64,000 nucleotides of DNA from Paragyromitra xinjiangensis (lineage: Eukaryota; Ascomycota; Pezizomycetes; Pezizales; Discinaceae), in the NCBI GenBank assembly GCA_038503065.1, contig JBCAMK010000004.1, positions 943,001 through 1,007,000 of the forward strand. The letters are read 5' to 3'. Every line of letters starts with the position of its first letter. Position 1 is the stretch's first letter. The notes beneath the pieces were generated by a model that was given only the letters and a program-made list of their open reading frames with translations, did not search any database and was not told the DNA's origin. Of this stretch, positions 24,054 to 34,835 are shown piece after piece. The position numbers and the translations under genes are program-made.

Positions 24054-26047
24054 TCCAATATTCGTATGTGAATATTGGTCAGATTTCCGAACTTTAATTC
24101 GTGTAATTTCGAAAGAACCGGAAGGTTGAAAACAGGCGCTGCAATGATGGCTGTAGTTTTACTTTTTCACATGATTGAATGAAATATATCATCCTGCGGG
24201 AAATCAGCATGAATCGAAGATAATTATTGGTGCATCGGGAGTTTAACGTATGAAGTCCCGAATTAACGAAAGTGCTCGTACTAGCAGCACTTTAAGCAAG
24301 ACTATCTTGATAAAAGATACCAATCCTCCGACTTCCGTAAGGGGCCCACAGCGAGTTGCTTCCAATGATGATGAATATCATAGATGTTGATGCCCCAGAA
24401 AATGGTCCAATCATAATCAGGCCCCCGGCCTACGCTCGGAACCGGGGTATGAGAAAGGTACGGGAACTATAGTCTCGGAAGACGGGGTGCTTTAACACCG
24501 CATCGTTAGAATATACGGGAATAGATTAGAGAAACTGTTGTGTCTGCGTTGTAATGCCGCAGATTTAACTCTGCATTCACAAGATACCGCACGAACACCG
24601 TAGTAATTCCGCACACTTCCCGATATTGTGGAGGGCGGAGGGCACATGTACGGGTGCGGGTAGCTACAGGAGTGTCCAAAGTTCCCCTGTTAAGCATCAC
24701 GCCATACATTGACGAATGGAGATGATGATTTCTCAAGCAGCACCTTGCATGATCCAGATGGTGGATAAACGGATATTTTGGATCCACAGCTTTACGAGTG
24801 ATAGAGTTGATAGAACTCAGAGCGTCTTGATGGAGGTGTCATGAAACAAGAGCGGAGATTGATTGCATTCGGAGTTGGGAGATGGTTTATTAATCTTATT
24901 AAGGATTGTTTGTTCTCAGCACGGTCATTGATTAATCGATTAGATCGTTGTGACGGTCAGGGCTGCCTAGGGTACAAGTTTTGCAAAGAACACGTACCAT
25001 CATAACGCCAGAAAGAATAACCTAGTTGAAAGACATGTGGGGCATTCCTCTCACTGGCGGCCCAAACGTACACGTTCTGGGCGGAAAGAGCTTTTGTGGG
25101 TAGCAGGGCACGGTTCAATTCCTGCCGGTTTCCCTTCCCTTTTATTTCAGGGGGGGGGGGGCTGTGGTATGGGAAAACATTAGGTTTAACCCTCTGTAGA
25201 AATCGGGTTAAGAGCCTAGTACCTGGGATTTCCATATGATCACCAGCTGAAGTATTACATATGTAATTACATGATACGGTGCTTGGGTCAATCAAAGGGA
25301 GTCTGCTCCCGGATCTCTCCACTCAAAGGTTACTAGAGTCAGGAGGGAATGCATTGCATTAAGATGTATCAGTTGATCCTATTTAGGGTCTAATCGCTAG
25401 AAGCCGCACCCGCTGCCTAATCATATGAATCCGTCAAGATTTCATCCCTCCCAGCTGCCTGAGAATAGTGTTTAAGCCACGTAAGTCTGTGAGATATATA
25501 TTTAAGGTCTTAGCTATCGATAAAATAGTATAAAATTTCTCTCACCCACTACAAGTCGAGATATACCATTAAATACATGTGGTATCCCTAGCAAAGGATC
25601 TCTCAAACACCAGAGTGTGAGTAACTACATGTAGGCTCGGATTTCCCGTACTTTTAATTCTGGCCTCTTTCTCACCCCTCTTCGAGCTTAAGGGAACTCT
25701 AGCCCCTGTAAGTCACTGTATGTAGGCGGGGGTGCATGTAGGTATACTCGTTGCATTTCGTCGAGAAGGTAATCAAAAATCGATCCGAGGGCAGCTACGT
25801 ATATACGTACTAGCTAAAAGCTTCATGAGGGTTGCGCGTGCACAATGTGCACAAGTGCTGAACCCTACCAAATTGCAAAACGGACTTCCTATGTAATAAG
25901 ATCGAGTTTAACACAAGAATGTGTATCAACTTGATGACCTTGACATGGAGGAAATGCGCTTTGTTTTGGCACTGAAGATTTTTTGTATTGTATGCACTTT
26001 AACTAGGGTCTGTTGCGTTATTTGATGTGGTTTAGGCTGTTGCTATT
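24054..26047. other. Gene-free transition into the repeat-rich block
   Basis: 2 kb without conserved frames. It includes a poly-G tract at about 25149-25161 and a stretch (25242-25308) related to 50751-50808. Probably decayed transposon DNA. Confidence 0.35.
25242..25308 (+). repeat. Dispersed repeat C, copy 1
   Basis: The ACCAGCTGAAGT..., CATGAT.C.GTGCTT.GGTCA segment also occurs at 50751-50808 in the same orientation with many substitutions. It is likely an old fragment of one transposon family. Confidence 0.4.
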
Positions 26048-26487
26048 TACAGTGCTTCCCTACCTACCGGCGTTCCCTCGGTAACGGCGCGGCGTTTGGG
26101 CCACTAAATTTTAGAAGCACTAAAAACAATTGTAAAAATCTGAAAAAATTCAGGTTGAAGAATAATATTAGTAAAGTAATATAGGAGAAAATCTAATGTG
26201 TGCAATTGTTTCTGGTTGCAATAGCCCAACTCTGGAGTTGGGGTTTTGTGCCAGCTTGTGTTGAGGGCTGCAACCAAAATACTTGGCTGCAAGAATAGAG
26301 ACACAGCACCAAGCCCGAAAAGTTTATGCAAACCGAACTCAGTAGAGTATACACCAGATATTATACTATCATGCTATGAATTTTCAGCGCATCCTGCTAA
26401 TGTTTGTTGGGAAAGTTCGGGCGTTGCAATCTGGTCGAAATGCCACGACGTTACTAAGGGAGCGCCGGTAGGTAGGGAAGCACTGTA
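26048..26487. mobile_element. Non-autonomous inverted-repeat element (MITE-like), TA-flanked
   Basis: The left end reads TA + CAGTGCTTCCCTACCTACCG (26048 onward) and the right end is its exact reverse complement ending ..GGGAAGCACTG + TA (26487). The perfect inverted repeat is about 25 bp counting the TA, and the element is about 440 bp. The flanking TA dinucleotides fit target duplication by a Tc1/mariner or pogo/Fot1-type transposase. No transposase is encoded. It lies 270 bp upstream of the gag array. Confidence 0.8.
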
Positions 26488-26661
26488 CCTATTTCGTACA
26501 CTGTTTGTTATGTTGCAGAATTGATAAACGTGTGTTTATATGTGACCTATAATGCAACTAGGTTTCATGGACAGGGTCAGGCACATGTGCGGTGTTAAGG
26601 ATTAGTCATTGTATTATTTCGTTGTGTTTCTTTGTGATTCGGTTGGGTTGCTTCGAATGGT

Positions 26662-26706
26662 TGAGTCATGAATGAGTCATGGAAAGGGGAAGATTGGGTA
26701 TATAAG
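26662..26706 (+). promoter_or_regulatory. Putative promoter of the gag array: two TGAGTCAT sites and a TATA box
   Basis: TGAGTCAT occurs at 26662-26669 and 26673-26680, an AP-1/Gcn4-type bZIP site in tandem. TATATAAG at 26699-26706 follows, about 60 bp before the repeated leader begins at 26761. This arrangement lies only ahead of the first unit. It may be the element's own promoter or host DNA at the insertion site. Confidence 0.5.
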
Positions 26707-27016
26707 CGATGGATTTTCGCGGTTGTGATTGTTCTTTTCTTTCTTTCTTTAAGCAACGTTTCTTCTTCTCCTCGCTACGCGACCTTCCCCATTAGGAAAT
26801 AGCAACGCCAACATTTCTCCACTTTCTCACGATAGTTCTTTAACTTTGGCTTCAACGCCTACCCCGCACAACGATACGTTGGACTTCGCTTCCCCAACGC
26901 AACTTCGTTTCGCCTAAAGGGTACTCGCACAGAGCCCTCGTTCTCCTCTACCCACCAGTTAGTTATTGATACGGTCGGCGTCAAAACTGGCTCATCAATA
27001 CACTCTCGACGAAATC

Positions 27017-28738
27017 ATGCCTCGCGGTAAGCGAGCTCCATCAAGTCAGTCAGGGAGGGCAGAGACGCCTTCTCAACACCACGTTCAAACCACCATCCCC
27101 TTCCACCAAACTCCCTCTCGCTCCAGTACCCCGTCTGGAAAACCTTACCACCTTTCCCCACCTGCTGGGGTCACGTCCGAAGTTAAAATCCTGGGGGCCA
27201 TCATAGTTAGAAAACCCAAACACATTGAACAACTCCTCGGTCGCTGGTTTGCAACCAATGATCCAGACTGGATTTCCGCCTGCCAGACCTGTCCTGCCAA
27301 CCCAGGACACCCAGATCACAAGGGAGTTCTTTTCCCTTCCCGCCCCTCTTCACCAATTCACCTGCAAGATACTGAGATGAGCACCGGAGTCGAGGAAACA
27401 CAACTCAGTCAGCTCAACCCTCTCCCCCTCCCGCCTCTTTCCTTCACGCAACACTCTGGCAACATTCCATGGAGCCAGACCCCCCTTCCGGAATCCCAGG
27501 ACACCAATTTACCCCCCCGCCCACCAGTTGACTCTGATTTTGAAACAGGATTCAAAACCAGTGTAGACTACACTGGCTGTAAAGCCTCTTTCCCTAGCCA
27601 TGACCTTTGGCTCATGGCCAGTTTTCAAGCCTGGTCCTCGCACCATGCCACCTTCCCCCTTTTAAAAACCATCCAGCAACTACAAGGAGAGGTCGCCCGT
27701 CTCCATACCGAGTCCCGTGATCTTCGCACGCAAGTCCTCAAACTTGCCAACCGACCACCTCCACCACCGGTTGTTCCCGCCCCTCTTGCTGCCTTGGCCA
27801 CTCCAGCCAATGCCCCCCCACCCCCACCAGTTAACTGGGCTGCAGTAGCTGCTGCTCCAGCTCCAGCTTCCAAACCTGCCCCCAAACCCAAGCCCGCACC
27901 CCTCATTAAACCGGATTATACCAGGGTCAATCGTGAGCTGGTAGTTCAGGTTGAGGGTCCCATTCCCAACCCCCCAACAGACGACAGGATCAAATCGGTC
28001 GTCAACAAAGTTCTGGACAGCACTGGTGCCAGTATCATCATGGCTCGCCGTACCCCCCGCAACAACATAATTCTCGAAACCCCGCTTGACACTCCAGCCT
28101 CCGTAGTAGATGTCTACTCCAAGGAAATTGGAGAAGCACTCCAGGAAGAAGGGATCTCGGTCACTTCAATCCACATTAACCAAGTTTGGTCAAAGTTCAT
28201 CGTCCACGGTATCCCTACCTCTGTCGGCGACGGTTCCGAAGCAGGCAACCTTGTGGCTTCTGAGCTCAAGGTTACTTACCCCTTCCTCACTCTTGCACAA
28301 CTCCCACGATGGCTCTCCTCTCCCCAGTCCCGTGAAGGAAAAGCACATTCCTCCATGGTCTTATCCTTTAATGGCTCTTACAACATGTCTACCCTCGGTG
28401 TCAAGAGCTTCATCATGTTCAACAGGAACTGCAAAGTTCAGCCCTATGTCTCGTTTCAACCCGACACTCAATGCAGGAAATGCTTTGCATATGGACACGC
28501 TACCACTATGTGCAAACATGATACCGGTCGTTGCGCGGTCTGCGCAGAACCCCATCTCACTCGCCATCACAAATGCGCCTCCTGTAAAGGAGGTTCGTCA
28601 TGCACTCACCCACCCATCCGCTGTGCCAACTGCCCCGGCAGACCTGGACACAAAGCCGACGACCCGAATTGTCCATCAAGGGTCAAACACGCGATCGCAA
28701 ACACAGGCAAAGGAAAGGAAGTCCAGATGGAGGTTTAG
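27017..28738 (+). CDS. LINE-like ORF1 (gag-like, zinc knuckles), unit 1
   Basis: 573-aa nucleic-acid-binding protein, gag-like, presumably packaging element RNA. The N-terminal third is Pro/Ser-rich. A short coiled segment (LLKTIQQLQGEVARLHTESRD) leads to a Pro/Ala linker, then a conserved core (VNRELVVQVEGPIPNPP..., about residues 302-450). Near the C-terminus are CRKCFAYGHATTMC (CX2CX4HX4C), CAVCAEPHLTRHHKC and CANCPGRPGHKADDPNC. The start is the first ATG (MPRGKRAPSSQSGR). The frame is open back to a conserved TTG at 26966, so non-AUG initiation is possible. This is the most divergent of the three copies. The zinc array resembles ORF1 of Tad/I-type LINEs. Confidence 0.82.
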   Translation: MPRGKRAPSSQSGRAETPSQHHVQTTIPFHQTPSRSSTPSGKPYHLSPPAGVTSEVKILGAIIVRKPKHIEQLLGRWFATNDPDWISACQTCPANPGHPDHKGVLFPSRPSSPIHLQDTEMSTGVEETQLSQLNPLPLPPLSFTQHSGNIPWSQTPLPESQDTNLPPRPPVDSDFETGFKTSVDYTGCKASFPSHDLWLMASFQAWSSHHATFPLLKTIQQLQGEVARLHTESRDLRTQVLKLANRPPPPPVVPAPLAALATPANAPPPPPVNWAAVAAAPAPASKPAPKPKPAPLIKPDYTRVNRELVVQVEGPIPNPPTDDRIKSVVNKVLDSTGASIIMARRTPRNNIILETPLDTPASVVDVYSKEIGEALQEEGISVTSIHINQVWSKFIVHGIPTSVGDGSEAGNLVASELKVTYPFLTLAQLPRWLSSPQSREGKAHSSMVLSFNGSYNMSTLGVKSFIMFNRNCKVQPYVSFQPDTQCRKCFAYGHATTMCKHDTGRCAVCAEPHLTRHHKCASCKGGSSCTHPPIRCANCPGRPGHKADDPNCPSRVKHAIANTGKGKEVQMEV

Positions 28739-28888
28739 TTTTCCTTTTGTTTATTTATTAGTTAAGGTTTTTTCATTTTTTCCTTTATCTTCGCTTGATA
28801 TTTTACGTTTGACTTTGATTCATGTTGCGCGGGTCAGAAGTAACCCACTTATGTATTTAAAATTTTGGCGGAAAGGATGGCGCGCGAT

Positions 28889-28904
28889 AAGCATTCAGTT
28901 GCTT
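28889..28904 (+). other. Conserved 3' stem-loop of gag unit 1
   Basis: AAGCA-TTCAGT-TGCTT, set in GGCGCGCGAT...CTATGCG, which can extend the stem through CGC/GCG. It sits about 12 bp before the ATT-rich tail. Stem bases are identical in all three units (31059-31074, 33233-33248). A LINE reverse transcriptase could recognise such a 3' structure in trans. Confidence 0.55.
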
Positions 28905-29187
28905 CTATGCGAAATAAATTTTATTATTATTATTTCTTCTTCTCCTCGCTACGCGACCTTCCCCATTAGGAAATAGCAACGCCAACATTTCTCCACTTTC
29001 TCACGATAGTTCTTTAACTTTGGCTTCAACGCCTACCCCGCACAACGACACGTTGGACCTTGCTTCCCCAACGCAACTTCGTTTCGCCTTAAGGGTACCT
29101 GCACAGAGCCCTCGTTCTCCTCTTCCCTCCTGCTAGTTTTTGACTCGGTCGGCATCAAAACTGGCTGATCAACTCCCCTCCTCCCAC

Positions 29188-30903
29188 ATGCCTCGCAATA
29201 AGCGAGCCCCCTCCTCACAGTCTGGGAGGTCCCAGACCCCCAACCCAAACCAGCCCCAAGTCCAAACCACCCTCAGCCATGCCTATGGTGGTCCCCCCCA
29301 GAAACCAAGAGGAATGTTCGACCCTCCTCCCCCCCTTCCTAAAATCCCACAGCACCCACCCGGTCTCATTCCAGAGATCCCTCAGCCAGCGGGTAGATTC
29401 GTTCCCCGACCCGTTCACTGGGAGAAGCTCTTAGGACACTTCTCCGCTACCAACAACTACGACTGGATCCAAGCGGGCATTGACTGCCCCGCCCACCCAC
29501 ACCACCCCGATTTTTGTGGGGTAATCTTCCCTACCTTCTCCCGTTCCAACACCCCAGCCCCCGCCGACACCCAGATGGAATCAGGAGTCCCTGAAACCCT
29601 CCTTCCCCCGTCTGATCCACTCCCATGGAGTCCCACACCGCTTCCTGAATCTCAGGACACCAGCCTCCCTCCCCGTCCCCCAGTTGACTCTGACTTTGAA
29701 GTTGGATTCAACATCAATGTCGACTACACAGGCTGCAAAGCCTCCTTCCCCAACCACGACCTTTGGCTCATGGCCAACTTCCAAGCCTGGTCTTCGCACC
29801 ATGCCACCTTCCCCCTTCTAAAAACCATCCAGCAACTACAGGGAGAGGTCGCGCGTCTCCATACCGAGTCTCGTGATCTTCGCTCGCAAGTTCTCAAACT
29901 TGCCAACCGACCCTCTCCTCCACCCCCTCCACCAGTTGTCCCCGTTCCACTTGCTGCTTTGGCTACTACAGTCAACGCTCCCCCACCTCCACCAGTCAAC
30001 TGGGCTGCAGTAGCCGCTGCTCCAGCTCCAACTTCCAAACCCGCACCTAAACCCAAGCCAGCACCCCTCATCAAACCAGACTACACCAGAGTCAATCGCG
30101 AACTGGTTGTACAAGTTGAGGGCCCCATCCCCAACCCACCCACTGACGACCGGATCAAGTCCCTCGTCAACAAAGTCCTTGACAGCACTGGTACCAGTGT
30201 TATCATGGCACGACGCACCCCCCGTAATAATATCATCCTAGAAACCCCGCTCGATACTCCAGCCTCGGCCGTAGATGTCTACGCCAGGGAAATTGGAGAA
30301 GCCCTACAGGAAGAAGGGATTTCGGTCTCCTCCATCCACATCAACCAAGTCTGGTCAAAGTTCATTGTCCACGGTATTCCCACGACTGTCGGCGATGGTA
30401 CTGATGCAGGCAACCTTGTGGCTTCTGAGCTCAAGGTAGCTTATCCATTCCTCACCCTCGCGCAACTTCCACGCTGGCTCTCTTCTCCTCAATCCCGTGA
30501 AGGAAAAGCTCATTCCTCCATGGTTCTTTCGTTTAACGGCTCTTACAACATGTCCACCCTCGGTGTTAAGAGTTTCATTATGTTTAACCGGAACTGCAAA
30601 GTTCAACCCTACGTTTCGTTCCAACCAGACACCCAATGCAGGAAATGCTTCGCATATGGTCATGCCACCACAATGTGCAAGCACGATACCGGTCGCTGCG
30701 CAGTTTGCGCCGAACCCCATCTCACTCGCAACCACAAGTGTTCCTCCTGTAAAGGAGGTTCCTCATGTATTCACCCACCCATCCGATGTGCCAACTGCCC
30801 TGGCAGACCTGGTCACAAAGCCGACGACCCAAATTGTCCATTGAGGGTCAAACACGCCATCAGTAACAAAGGCAAAGGGAAGGAAGTCCCGATGGAGGTT
30901 TAA
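29188..30903 (+). CDS. LINE-like ORF1 (gag-like, zinc knuckles), unit 2
   Basis: 571-aa copy with intact frame from ATG (MPRNKRAPSSQSGRSQ). The N-terminal part differs from unit 1 (PHAYGG.. and GRFVPRPVHWEKLLG segments), while the core and zinc knuckles are almost identical in protein sequence although many third codon positions differ. That pattern suggests purifying selection since the copies split. All Cys and His of the knuckles are retained. Unit 2 shares its leader exactly with unit 3. Confidence 0.82.
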   Translation: MPRNKRAPSSQSGRSQTPNPNQPQVQTTLSHAYGGPPQKPRGMFDPPPPLPKIPQHPPGLIPEIPQPAGRFVPRPVHWEKLLGHFSATNNYDWIQAGIDCPAHPHHPDFCGVIFPTFSRSNTPAPADTQMESGVPETLLPPSDPLPWSPTPLPESQDTSLPPRPPVDSDFEVGFNINVDYTGCKASFPNHDLWLMANFQAWSSHHATFPLLKTIQQLQGEVARLHTESRDLRSQVLKLANRPSPPPPPPVVPVPLAALATTVNAPPPPPVNWAAVAAAPAPTSKPAPKPKPAPLIKPDYTRVNRELVVQVEGPIPNPPTDDRIKSLVNKVLDSTGTSVIMARRTPRNNIILETPLDTPASAVDVYAREIGEALQEEGISVSSIHINQVWSKFIVHGIPTTVGDGTDAGNLVASELKVAYPFLTLAQLPRWLSSPQSREGKAHSSMVLSFNGSYNMSTLGVKSFIMFNRNCKVQPYVSFQPDTQCRKCFAYGHATTMCKHDTGRCAVCAEPHLTRNHKCSSCKGGSSCIHPPIRCANCPGRPGHKADDPNCPLRVKHAISNKGKGKEVPMEV

Positions 30904-31058
30904 GTTTTCCTTTCGTTAAAGTTTATTGATTAAGGTTTTATGTTATTTTCCTTTACTTGTCGCTTGATATTTATGTTTGAATTTGATTCATGTCGCATGG
31001 GTTTAATAAGTTACCCGTTTATGTATTTATCTTTTTGGCGGTTAGGCAGGCGCGCGAT

Positions 31059-31074
31059 AAGCATTAAGTTGCTT
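31059..31074 (+). other. Conserved 3' stem-loop of gag unit 2
   Basis: Same stem, loop TTAAGT instead of TTCAGT. The only change is in the loop, which supports structural conservation. Confidence 0.55.
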
Positions 31075-31358
31075 CTATGCGAAATAAAATATTATTATTA
31101 TTATTTCTTCTTCTCCTCGCTACGCGACCTTCCCCATTAGGAAATAGCAACGCCAACATTTCTCCACTTTCTCACGATAGTTCTTTAACTTTGGCTTCAA
31201 CGCCTACCCCGCACAACGACACGTTGGACCTTGCTTCCCCAACGCAACTTCGTTTCGCCTTAAGGGTACCTGCACAGAGCCCTCGTTCTCCTCTTCCCTC
31301 CTGCTAGTTTTTGACTCGGTCGGCATCAAAACTGGCTGATCAAACCCCCCGCCAAAAT

Positions 31359-33077
31359 ATGCCTCGCAATAAGCGAGCCCCCTCCTCACAATCTGGGAGA
31401 TCCCAGACTCCCAACCCCAACCAGCCACAAGTCCAAACCACCCTAAGCTATGCCTACGGTGGTCCCCCCCAGAAACCACGAGGGATGTTTGACACTCCTC
31501 CTCCACCTCCCAAAATCCCACAACATCCTCCGGGCCTTGTCCCAGAGATCCCACAACCAGCGGGTAGATTCGTTCCCCGACCCATTCATTGGGAGAAGCT
31601 CCTAGGACACTTCTCCGCAACCAATAATTACGACTGGATCCAAGCGGGCATTGACTGCCCCGCCCACCCACATCACCCCGATTTTAGTGGGGTAATTTTC
31701 CCCACCTTCTCCCGCGCTAACACCCCAGCCCTACCTGATGACACCCAGATGGAATCAGGAGTCCCAGAGACTCTCCTACCTCCGTCTGACCCCTTACCAT
31801 GGAGCCCGACTCCACTCCCTGAATCCCAAGACACTAGTCTTCCCCCTCGTCCCCCCGTTGACTCTGATTTTGAAGTCGGTTTCAACATCAACGTTGACTT
31901 CACGGGCTGTAAAGCCTCTTTCCCCAACCACGATCTCTGGCTTATGGCCAATTTCCAAGCCTGGTCTTCGCACCACGCCACCTTCCCCCTCCTGAAAACC
32001 ATTCAACAATTGCAAGGAGAGGTTGCCCGCCTCCATACGGAGTCACGCGACCTGCGGTCGCAAGTTCTCAAACTCGCCAACCGTCCTTCTCCTCCTCCTC
32101 CTCCACCAGTTGTCCCTGTCCCACTTGCTGCCTTGGCTACTACGGTCAATGCTCCTCCCCCACCACCAGTTAACTGGGCCGCAGTAGCTGCTGCTCCGGC
32201 CACAGTCTCCAAACCCGTCACCAAACCCAAGCCCGCCCCCCTCATTAAACCTGACTATACCAGAGTCAATCGCGAATTGGTAGTCCAGGTCGAGGGCCCC
32301 ATTCCCAACCCCCCCACAGACGACAGGATCAAATCGGTCGTCAACAAAGTCCTTGATAGCACCGGCACCAGTGTCATCATGGCCCGTCGCACCCCCCGCA
32401 ACAACATTATTCTTGAAACTCCGCTCGACACTCCAGCCTCTGCTGTAGATGTCTACGCCAGGGAAATCGGAGAGGCCCTACAGGAAGAAGGGATCTCGGT
32501 CTCTTCCATCCACATCAATCAAGTCTGGTCGAAATTCATTGTCCACGGTATTCCCACGACTGTTGGCGATGGTACCGACGCAGGCAACCTTGTGGCTTCT
32601 GAGCTCAAGGTGGCCTACCCATTCCTCACCCTTGCTCAACTACCACGCTGGCTCTCCTCTCCTCAATCCCGTGAAGGAAAAGCGCATTCCTCCATGGTTC
32701 TTTCCTTCAATGGCTCTTACAACATGTCCACCTTGGGAGTAAAGAGTTTCATCATGTTCAATCGGAACTGCAAAGTTCAACCCTACGTTTCATTCCAACC
32801 CGACACCCAATGCAGGAAATGCTTCGCTTATGGTCATGCCACCACAATGTGCAAGCACGATACCGGTCGTTGCGCAGTTTGCGCAGAACCCCATCTCACT
32901 CGCAATCACAAGTGTTCCTTTTGCAAAGGAGGTTCATCATGCATTCACCCACCCATCCGATGCGCCAACTGCCCCGGCAGACCTGGCCATCAAGCCGACG
33001 ACCCAAATTGTCCATCAAGGGTCAAACACGCCATTAGCAACAAAGGCAAAGGGAAGGAAGTCCCGATGGAAGTTTAG
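31359..33077 (+). CDS. LINE-like ORF1 (gag-like, zinc knuckles), unit 3
   Basis: 572-aa copy, intact, closest to unit 2. Differences from unit 2 are mostly synonymous or conservative (PIHWEKLLG, PATVSKPVTKPK, CSFCKGG). Zinc-knuckle residues are complete. The stop is followed by T-rich 3' UTR and the conserved stem-loop at 33233-33248. No ORF2 follows, and after the tail a broken host gene begins on the other strand. Confidence 0.82.
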   Translation: MPRNKRAPSSQSGRSQTPNPNQPQVQTTLSYAYGGPPQKPRGMFDTPPPPPKIPQHPPGLVPEIPQPAGRFVPRPIHWEKLLGHFSATNNYDWIQAGIDCPAHPHHPDFSGVIFPTFSRANTPALPDDTQMESGVPETLLPPSDPLPWSPTPLPESQDTSLPPRPPVDSDFEVGFNINVDFTGCKASFPNHDLWLMANFQAWSSHHATFPLLKTIQQLQGEVARLHTESRDLRSQVLKLANRPSPPPPPPVVPVPLAALATTVNAPPPPPVNWAAVAAAPATVSKPVTKPKPAPLIKPDYTRVNRELVVQVEGPIPNPPTDDRIKSVVNKVLDSTGTSVIMARRTPRNNIILETPLDTPASAVDVYAREIGEALQEEGISVSSIHINQVWSKFIVHGIPTTVGDGTDAGNLVASELKVAYPFLTLAQLPRWLSSPQSREGKAHSSMVLSFNGSYNMSTLGVKSFIMFNRNCKVQPYVSFQPDTQCRKCFAYGHATTMCKHDTGRCAVCAEPHLTRNHKCSFCKGGSSCIHPPIRCANCPGRPGHQADDPNCPSRVKHAISNKGKGKEVPMEV

Positions 33078-33232
33078 TTTTTCCTTTCGCTTAAGTTTTA
33101 GTTAAGGTTTTATTTATGATATTTTTCCTTTATTTTTCGTTTGATATTTACGCTTGAATTATTCATGTTGCATGGGTTGAATAAGTAACCTATTTATGTA
33201 TCTATTCTTTGGCGGTTTGGTAGGCGCGCGAT

Positions 33233-33248
33233 AAGCATTCAGTTGCTT
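33233..33248 (+). other. Conserved 3' stem-loop of gag unit 3
   Basis: Identical stem and loop to unit 1, followed by GCGAAATAAAATTTATTATTATT at the array end. Confidence 0.55.
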
Positions 33249-33299
33249 CTATGCGAAATAAAATTTATTATTATTTCTTACTTTACTTCTACCCTACTG

Positions 33300-33530
33300 T
33301 TATAGAAATACCATCTCTGTTTCCACCTCAGAAACATCGTCGTCGCTGTCGCTGTCACCCCCAGAGTCACCTCGACTCTTACCCTACGTGAGGCCTGTGG
33401 AAAACATTGTATTATCATTGTAGCGACGTCTCATTCAAGTAGCACTGCTCACCTTTGGGGATACCGAAGGGCTTGACAAAACCTCGCTCCCTGAGACTAG
33501 GCTGAGCATTTTTGAGGGCTGTCAGACAGT
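33300..33530 (-). pseudogene. 3'-terminal fragment of a spliced host gene
   Basis: Read on the minus strand, a CTGACAG acceptor (branch-like CTCTAACC upstream) opens ALKNAQPSLRERGFVKPFGI, followed by a GTGAGC donor. A later acceptor opens an acidic Ser/Asp tail (SDSDDDVSEVETEMVFL) ending TAA at 33302-33300. Splice signals look intact, but I cannot find the upstream exons. The piece may be the end of a gene cut by transposon activity or a decayed transposon gene. The family was not recognised. Confidence 0.4.
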
Positions 33531-34059: not shown

Positions 34060-34835
34060 GAATCGACCTATTTCGCAGGGCGGGCGGAAGCTCGCAGCAT
34101 AATGGGAATTGACCATAGCCGGAGAATGAGGCAATGAGGCTGCAGCAGCAAATCGACCATATGGCAGAGGCGGCGGAAGCTCAGGCAGCAGAGCGACCAT
34201 GTGGCGGAGGCGGAGGAAGCGCAGGCAGCGAATCGACCATATGGCGCAGGCAGCGAATCGACCTATTGGCGCAGGCAGCGGAAGCTGCAGCAGCGAATCG
34301 ACCATATGGCGCAGGCTGCAGAAGCGCAGGCAGCGAATTGACCATATGGCGGAGGCAGTGGAGGCAGTGGAGGCTGCAGCAGCAAATCGACCATATGGCA
34401 GAGGCGGCGGAAGCTCAGGCAGCGAATCGACCATATGGCGCAGGCAGCGAATCGACCTATTGGCGCAGGCAGCGGAAGCTGCAGCAGCGAATTGACCATA
34501 TGGCGGAAGCGGAGGAAGCGGCGGAAGCTGCAGCAGCGAATTGACCATATGGCGGAGGCAGCGGAGGCAGCTGCAGCAAATCGATCATATGGCAGAGGCG
34601 GCGGAAGCGGAGGCAGCGAATCGACCTATTGGCACAGGCAGCAGAAGCTGCAGCAGCGAATTGACCATATGGCGGAGGCGGAGGAAGCTCAGGCAGCGGA
34701 TTGACCATATGGCGCAGGCAGCGAATTGACCTATTGGCGCAGGCAGCGGAAGCTGCAGCAGCGAATCGACCATATGGCGCAGGCGCAGGCAGCGCAGGCA
34801 GCGAATCGACGACCTGCCAGAGGCTGGCAGCAAAT
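34060..34835. repeat. Complex minisatellite built on GCAGCGAATCGACCATATGG
   Basis: About 780 bp of interleaved tandem repeats. The core GCGAATCGACCATATGGC (variants ACCTATTGGC, AATTGACC) alternates with GGCAGCGGAAGCTGCAGCA modules; higher-order periods vary, about 39-66 bp. Because module lengths are mostly multiples of three, several frames on both strands stay open and give false proteins rich in AAN-RPYG or Leu/Pro. No evidence of coding. Confidence 0.85.

What the first reader, a model, noticed from the sequence alone, without database searches (positions are those of the whole stretch)
26761..33276. Head-to-tail array of gag-only LINE-like units resembling HeT-A architecture
Three complete ~2.17 kb units abut directly, each tail meeting the next leader with no spacer. 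Each encodes only a zinc-knuckle gag-like protein and no reverse transcriptase or endonuclease. Seen: repeated leader, intact ORF, conserved 3' stem-loop, ATT-rich tail. Known: Drosophila HeT-A is a gag-only non-LTR element that forms such arrays at chromosome ends using a reverse transcriptase supplied in trans. Inference: this fungus may have a comparable trans-mobilised element with targeted tail-to-leader insertion. Nothing here shows a telomeric position.
Basis: partly seen in the sequence, partly recalled or inferred. Interest (0 to 1): 0.82.

Follow-up and report, generated by a model that had tools for sequence, protein, structure and literature searches.

The report
Gag-only LINE array inside LTR promoter
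In what looks like a fungal genome, small "jumping genes" that lack their own copying enzyme sit one behind the other at one exact spot in the start switch of another kind of jumping gene, probably copied there by the machinery of a full-length relative that lands at the same spot.

Summary
Three gag-only LINE-like units (26761-28934, 28935-31105, 31106-33275) abut head to tail. The whole array interrupts a solo LTR (26563-26760 + 33276-33496, flanked by the 5-bp duplication CTAGG) of a chromodomain Ty3/gypsy retrotransposon. In the genome, 24 of 24 A leaders found begin either at this LTR site, with TATATAAG 61-63 nt upstream (17), or directly after another unit's tail (7). Empty LTR sites exist (14 abutting flank pairs). 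A full-length APE-type LINE ("B": ORF1 plus EN-RT ORF2) shares the last ~70 nt and the target and sits in the same arrays, as does a 1.26-kb unit without a long ORF ("C"). In the window, units 1 and 2 are each closest to copies on other contigs, and gag is under purifying selection (dN/dS ~0.12), so the array is repeated independent insertion, not duplication. A parallel set (A'/B') has its own matched tail and LTR target; a third set inserts in gypsy integrase sequence. HeT-A-like in logic (gag-only, probably trans-mobilised, arrayed) but not telomeric and not shown to be a HeT-A relative. New variant: a site-specific LINE guild living in LTR promoters.

The parts
26558..26562 (.). 5-bp target duplication CTAGG of the host solo LTR (left)
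   Evidence: repeated at 33497-33501
26563..26760 (+). 5' half of the Ty3/gypsy LTR (target 1)
   Evidence: same LTR flanks an intact gag-pol element
26699..26706 (+). TATATAAG box of the LTR, 62 nt before the insertion point
   Evidence: present 61-63 nt upstream in 17 of 17 LTR-inserted leaders
26751..26760 (+). AAGCAACGTT, last 10 nt before the insertion; AAGCAACGT is complementary to the first bases after the LTR (putative self-primer / mRNA start)
26761..28934 (+). gag-only unit 1 (subfamily alpha)
27017..28738 (+). gag ORF of unit 1, 573 aa
28879..28912 (+). conserved 3' stem-loop of unit 1
28935..31105 (+). gag-only unit 2 (subfamily beta)
28935..29172 (+). leader of unit 2, identical over 238 nt to that of unit 3
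29188..30903 (+). gag ORF of unit 2, 571 aa
31049..31082 (+). conserved 3' stem-loop of unit 2
31106..33275 (+). gag-only unit 3 (subfamily beta)
31359..33077 (+). gag ORF of unit 3, 572 aa
33223..33256 (+). conserved 3' stem-loop of unit 3
33276..33496 (+). 3' half of the Ty3/gypsy LTR (TCTTACTTTACTTC...CCTGAGA)
33497..33501 (.). 5-bp target duplication CTAGG of the host solo LTR (right)

Best explanation
The units are a non-autonomous, gag-only LINE family (A) that is reverse transcribed in trans by a full-length APE-type LINE (B) with the same 3' end. Its endonuclease nicks one fixed site in the LTR of a Ty3/gypsy element (AAGCAACGTT^TCTTACTTTACTTC), about 62 nt after the LTR's TATA box. 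Target-primed reverse transcription starts there. The 3' side of the site (TCTTACTTTACTTC...) is left intact next to the new element's (ATT)n tail, so the site can be used again and A, B and a 1.26-kb unit without a long ORF (C) stack head to tail. Sitting at the LTR's promoter, the first unit is probably transcribed by it. SHOWN: fixed site, empty sites, shared 3' ends, mixed arrays, independent origin of the window's units 1 and 2, purifying selection on gag. INFERRED: B supplies EN/RT, TPRT, LTR-driven transcription, which side of the array grows, what the A gag does.
For: Site: 24 of 24 A leaders at LTR1 (17) or after a unit tail (7), none elsewhere; 45 of 45 3' ends matched by the pattern are followed by an A/B/C leader (7/5/6) or by the LTR1 (18) or LTR2 (9) site, one of the 9 with a base change. 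Empty sites: 14 abutting flank pairs among 40 listed hits on each side; 6 were read, 4 with the exact sequence and 2 with one or two base changes. LTR identity: paired LTRs ~5.6 kb apart around an RT, one of them with intact gag and pol (RT, RNase H, integrase, chromodomain); 5-bp target duplications at the window array, one C3 and one C17 array. Partner: B ORF1 513 aa, ORF2 1044 aa with Exo_endo_phos_2 and RVT_1, directly abutting A units and ending in the same terminal sequence and target; 10 loci at 81-100%, some partial or with stops. Independence: C4a groups with C12/C16/C17 copies, C4b with C17_1522 (support 0.999). Selection: 16 of 22 stitched units have an intact ORF; median dN/dS 0.123 over 120 pairs, 0.048 in the C-terminal half. 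Parallel set: B' (5 of 5) and A' (4 of 4) share another tail and LTR2 site; 54 empty-type LTR2 sites with up to 2 mismatches, 0 in the control.
Against: No activity, RNA or biochemical data. Rescue by B is inferred from shared 3' end and target only; a diverged unseen LINE could do it. The stem-loop is not unusually stable in single sequences. The TCTT at both ends leaves open whether there is a short target duplication or none. The self-primer match is only 9 nt (91 of 5000 shuffles reach it for LTR1, 27 of 5000 for LTR2) and lies upstream of the site in LTR1 but 9 nt downstream in LTR2. Genome searches score only the best candidates, so lists are lower bounds. One assembly; reads were not available.
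Confidence: 0.85

Rival explanations
1. Tandem duplication (unequal crossing-over) of one insertion, or an assembly artefact.
For: Units 2 and 3 have identical 238-nt leaders and lie in one small clade.
Against: Neighbours differ deeply (C4b-C4c dS 0.66, C4a-C4b dS 0.88); unit 1 groups with C12/C16/C17 copies and unit 2 is closer to a C17 copy than to unit 3. Arrays mix different unit types A, B and C.
Confidence: 0.05
2. The gag-only units are internal deletion products of full-length LINEs, i.e. dead remnants.
For: No ORF2; shared 3' end with B; 6 of 22 units have a broken or interrupted ORF.
Against: A and A' gags form one clade apart from B and B' (supports 0.998 and 0.980; A-A' 66%, A-B 45%). 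16 of 22 ORFs are intact with dN/dS about 0.12. In the 22 stitched units the A-type 3' end follows the gag without ORF2.
Confidence: 0.06
3. True HeT-A-type telomere element or relic of telomeric arrays now internal.
For: Gag-only plus autonomous partner in head-to-tail arrays, as in HeT-A/TART (PMC5537684, passages).
Against: The 17 leaders that start an array lie in an LTR. TTTAGGG repeats, the likely telomere repeat, were seen near 1 of 6 contig ends read (C13), and no A leader lies within 200 kb of a contig end.
Confidence: 0.03
4. A is mobilised by a LINE other than B and merely shares the niche.
For: A gag is not close to B gag; several other LINE lineages exist.
Against: Matched tail and target in two parallel pairs (A/B at LTR1, A'/B' at LTR2) is what partner dependence predicts.
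Confidence: 0.12

Closest known systems
Drosophila HeT-A / TART / TAHRE (PMC5537684, passages seen)
   Same: Gag-only element plus autonomous APE-type partner, head-to-tail mixed arrays, RT in trans
   Different: Here the target is an internal LTR site, not a chromosome end; 3' UTR short (about 200 nt); homology to HeT-A gag not tested
HAL1, mammalian half-L1 (PMC5753468, passages seen)
   Same: ORF1-only LINE derivative
   Different: HAL1 is described as an L1 derivative that arose several times; A gag forms its own clade with A', is target-specific and arrayed
CNL1 / MoTeR of fungi (PMC12810828, passages seen; the non-autonomous MoTeR2 is recalled)
   Same: Fungal, telomere-targeting or arrayed non-LTR elements with sequence preference
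   Different: CNL1 is described there as R2-related and subtelomeric, MoTeR as its nearest relative; B has an APE-type endonuclease and an LTR target
Sequence-specific LINEs of the Tx1 and R1 clades (PMC4640811, introduction passages; SART, TRAS and Tx1L partly recalled)
   Same: LINEs with one fixed multicopy target; transposons are named among known targets
   Different: Target here is the promoter region of a Ty3/gypsy LTR; clade membership of B not tested
SINE/LINE pairs with stringent 3'-end recognition (PMC3747384, passages seen)
   Same: Non-autonomous unit carries the LINE's 3' end
   Different: Unit A encodes and conserves a gag; unit C is 1.26 kb

Membership tests
HeT-A (telomeric gag-only LINE) | encodes gag, no RT/EN | tested here: met
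HeT-A (telomeric gag-only LINE) | head-to-tail arrays with an autonomous partner | tested here: met
HeT-A (telomeric gag-only LINE) | at chromosome ends | tested here: not met
   nearest 204,606 bp; LTR flanks
HeT-A (telomeric gag-only LINE) | Jockey-clade ancestry | not tested
   no reference sequences at hand
site-specific APE-type LINE (partner B) | APE-like endonuclease plus RT in ORF2 | tested here: met
   nearest solved structure by sequence L1 ORF2p, E 7.2e-14
site-specific APE-type LINE (partner B) | one fixed insertion sequence | tested here: met
   6 of 6 B-type 3' ends with DNA meet LTR1 (5) or an A leader (1)
R2/CRE-like site-specific elements (CNL1, MoTeR) | single ORF, restriction-like endonuclease | tested here: not met
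   two ORFs and an APE-type domain
HAL1-like ORF1-only derivative | ORF1 derived from the present partner | tested here: not met
   A groups with A', not with B
LINE ORF1 with RNA-binding domain and zinc knuckles | RRM-like domain before CCHC knuckles | tested here: inconclusive
Tf1-like self-primed Ty3/gypsy (the target) | LTR segment complementary to the primer site next to the LTR | tested here: inconclusive
   9-nt match in both LTR families; 91 and 27 of 5000 shuffles reach it

The most novel reading that the evidence does not exclude
A LINE lineage that lives in the promoters of Ty3/gypsy LTRs: autonomous, gag-only and non-gag units use one nick site at the LTR transcription start, hijack that promoter, and stack in arrays. 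The gag-only lineage has persisted through at least one switch of autonomous partner, changing its 3' tail and its LTR target together (A/B at LTR1, A'/B' at LTR2), and gag-only forms arose again in a third lineage that targets gypsy integrase.
Probability: 0.55. Interest if true: 0.85.

Novelty: new variant of a known kind. Interest (0 to 1): 0.74.

Why it matters
It shows a HeT-A/TART-like division of labour away from telomeres, with replicate systems in one genome. That lets one ask directly what a gag-only LINE gains by keeping gag, and whether tail and target identity together define partner choice. A LINE that inserts at the start site of an LTR promoter would be a parasite of a parasite that solves the LINE promoter problem, and its endonuclease would be a new site-specific nickase.
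Full report
WHAT IS THERE. Repeat and ORF scans confirm three direct units of about 2.17 kb that abut without spacer. By genome coordinates they are 26761-28934, 28935-31105 and 31106-33275. Each has a ~250-nt leader, one ORF (573, 571, 572 aa), a ~200-nt 3' UTR, a conserved stem-loop and an (ATT)n tail. Pfam finds no enzyme domain; the zinc knuckles are seen by eye and as sub-threshold hits in units 2 and 3.

THE ARRAY SITS INSIDE AN LTR. The sequence left of the array has 42 listed matches and that on the right 40 (of 101 and 110 candidates). In 14 places among 40 rows per side (two partial rows dropped) the two halves abut with a one-base overlap: the empty site. Of six such sites read, four show AAGCAACGTT^TCTTACTTTACTTC with TATATAA 62 nt before the cut and two differ there by one or two bases. 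Pairs of these sites lie about 5.6 kb apart around a reverse transcriptase, and one such element carries an intact gag (Retrotrans_gag) and pol (RVT_1, RNase H, Integrase_H2C2, rve, Chromo): a chromodomain Ty3/gypsy element. The window LTR is 26563-26760 plus 33276-33496, with CTAGG on both sides; a C3 array (GCTTG) and a C17 array (CAGAG) also lie in solo LTRs with 5-bp duplications, while several other arrays continue into the gypsy interior.

SITE SPECIFICITY. Of 27 leader matches, 23 span the whole leader, two are the two parts of one split C9 leader, and two belong to A'. The resulting 24 A leaders begin either at the LTR site (17; TATATAAG 61-63 nt upstream in 17 of 17) or directly after a unit tail (5 after A/B tails, 2 after C tails), none elsewhere. 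Of the 34 3'-end matches, 30 came with DNA; by reading, the 24 A-type ends are followed by the LTR (12), an A leader (4), a B leader (4) or a C leader (4), and the 6 B-type ends by the LTR (5) or an A leader (1). In all DNA held, 45 ends match the stem-loop pattern (47 rows, two false ones inside coding sequence dropped); 45 of 45 are followed by an A, B or C leader (7, 5, 6), LTR1 (18) or LTR2 (9, one with a base change). Insertions are mostly full length: 22 of the 24 A leaders pair with one of the 24 A-type 3' ends, 26 loci in all, three of the 22 being longer than usual.

A FULL-LENGTH PARTNER SHARES END AND TARGET. At C12, right after an A unit, comes a 5.1-kb LINE (B) with ORF1 (513 aa) and ORF2 (1044 aa: Exo_endo_phos_2, RVT_1), ending in the same ~70 nt and (ATT)n and followed by the same LTR half. 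Ten B loci are listed (81-100%, some partial or with stops); A-B or B-A neighbours occur on C12, C16 and C17. A third unit, C (about 1.26 kb, longest stop-free frame 108 codons), carries the same stem-loop but a CCTTTACCTT-type tail, and stacks with A and B. The stem-loop pairs covary, though single sequences fold no better than shuffles.

NOT DUPLICATIONS, NOT DEAD. In the gag tree of the 16 intact copies, unit 1 groups with copies on C12, C16 and C17, and unit 2 with one on C17 (0.999), with unit 3 next to that pair, so at least units 1 and 2 arrived independently. The C13 pair also joins two subfamilies by segment identity. Sixteen of 22 stitched units have an intact ORF; median dN/dS is 0.123 over 120 pairs and 0.048 in the C-terminal half; units 2 and 3 have dN 0.016, dS 0.657. 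The leader is the best conserved part (mean identity 0.919 against 0.887 for the best ORF part, 0.890 for the 3' end and 0.795 for the 3' UTR; 19 units), and units 2 and 3 share an identical leader, which needs constraint or local conversion. Leader motifs are shared with A', B, B' and in part with the third lineage (by eye).

A PARALLEL SYSTEM. The A gag's nearest relatives (68-69%, 4 loci) are another gag-only family, A'. All 4 end in ...GCGATAAAATATTAATTGA..., less than 300 nt after the gag, followed by a second LTR (TTGAGCCCTTAAGATTC or a near match). A second full-length LINE, B' (ORF2 51-52% to B, 5 loci), has the same tail and the same second LTR site in 5 of 5, and a C-like unit precedes one A' and one B' copy. 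The LTR2 empty-site sequence occurs 54 times with up to 2 mismatches (10 exact), 0 in the control. ORF1 identities are A-A' 66%, A-B 45%, B-B' 50%; the tree puts A with A' and B with B'. So the gag-only lineage is not a recent by-product of either partner, and its tail and target go with the partner. A third lineage (C8, C19) also has gag-only units in tandem and, on C8, in front of a full-length LINE with RNase H; the two outer ends read lie at the same point of a sequence that matches the integrase core (rve, E 1.5e-7, 0.6 bits under the cut-off on this 72-aa piece); the site has 39 matches with up to 3 mismatches, the two occupied ones included, 0 in the control.

MECHANISM. Most likely B's endonuclease nicks the LTR, B's RT copies A, B or C RNA through the common 3' end, and the intact 3' side of the site allows repeated use. 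The site is where the LTR promoter should start RNA: 62 nt after TATATAA, next to AAGCAACGT, which is complementary to the first bases after the LTR, as in self-primed Tf1-like elements (recalled; 9 nt, 91 of 5000 shuffles reach it; LTR2 has a 9-nt match starting 9 nt after its site, 27 of 5000). LTR-driven transcription of the first unit is therefore likely but not shown. Partner use, TPRT and promoter capture are inference.

COMPARISON. HeT-A/TART: same logic, but the defining position at chromosome ends is not met. HAL1: ORF1-only, but A is not derived from its present partner. CNL1/MoTeR: fungal, arrayed or telomere-targeting, but CNL1 is described as R2-related. Target-specific LINEs: the majority of known families lie in early-branched, Tx1 and R1 clades (PMC4640811, passages); B's clade was not tested. 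I saw no report of a LINE specific for an LTR in the searches listed under Tried and rejected.

Noticed in passing
L080 (C8:718500-724900), L081 (C19:952600-957200), L083: Third gag-only/LINE system: gag-only units in tandem (C8, C19), on C8 followed by a full-length LINE with RNase H, tail (AAATTGG)n, outer ends at one site in gypsy integrase sequence.
   Followed up: partly
C units (e.g. L031, L060) and 3' UTRs in L080/L081: A motif GTGCGGTTGGT-N3-9-ACCATA, often after CTGTAACG, recurs (two per unit where whole units were read) in C units and in third-lineage gag-only 3' UTRs; no Rfam match for a C unit. Candidate structured RNA module.
   Followed up: partly
genome contigs, e.g. C8 690-852k, C6 1.31-1.49M, C22 607-736k: By eye, LINE and gypsy matches cluster in one mid-contig region on many contigs; candidate centromeres.
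   Followed up: no
L087 (C13 end): One of six contig ends read carries TTTAGGG repeats, while TTAGGG x4 is absent from the assembly: plant-like telomere motif.
   Followed up: no
window 26039-26488: About 450-bp stretch with terminal inverted repeats (GTGCTTCCCTACCTACCGGCG...), MITE-like, just left of the LTR (by eye).
   Followed up: no
window 34136-34824: Imperfect GC-rich array with 25/40-bp units, unrelated to the LINE array.
   Followed up: no
leaders of A, A', B, B' and third lineage: Shared 5' UTR motifs (CACGATAAGTCTTTA..GGCTTC, ACGGTCG) across autonomous and gag-only units suggest a conserved 5' RNA element; leader fold z -1.68, 11 of 200 shuffles as good.
   Followed up: partly
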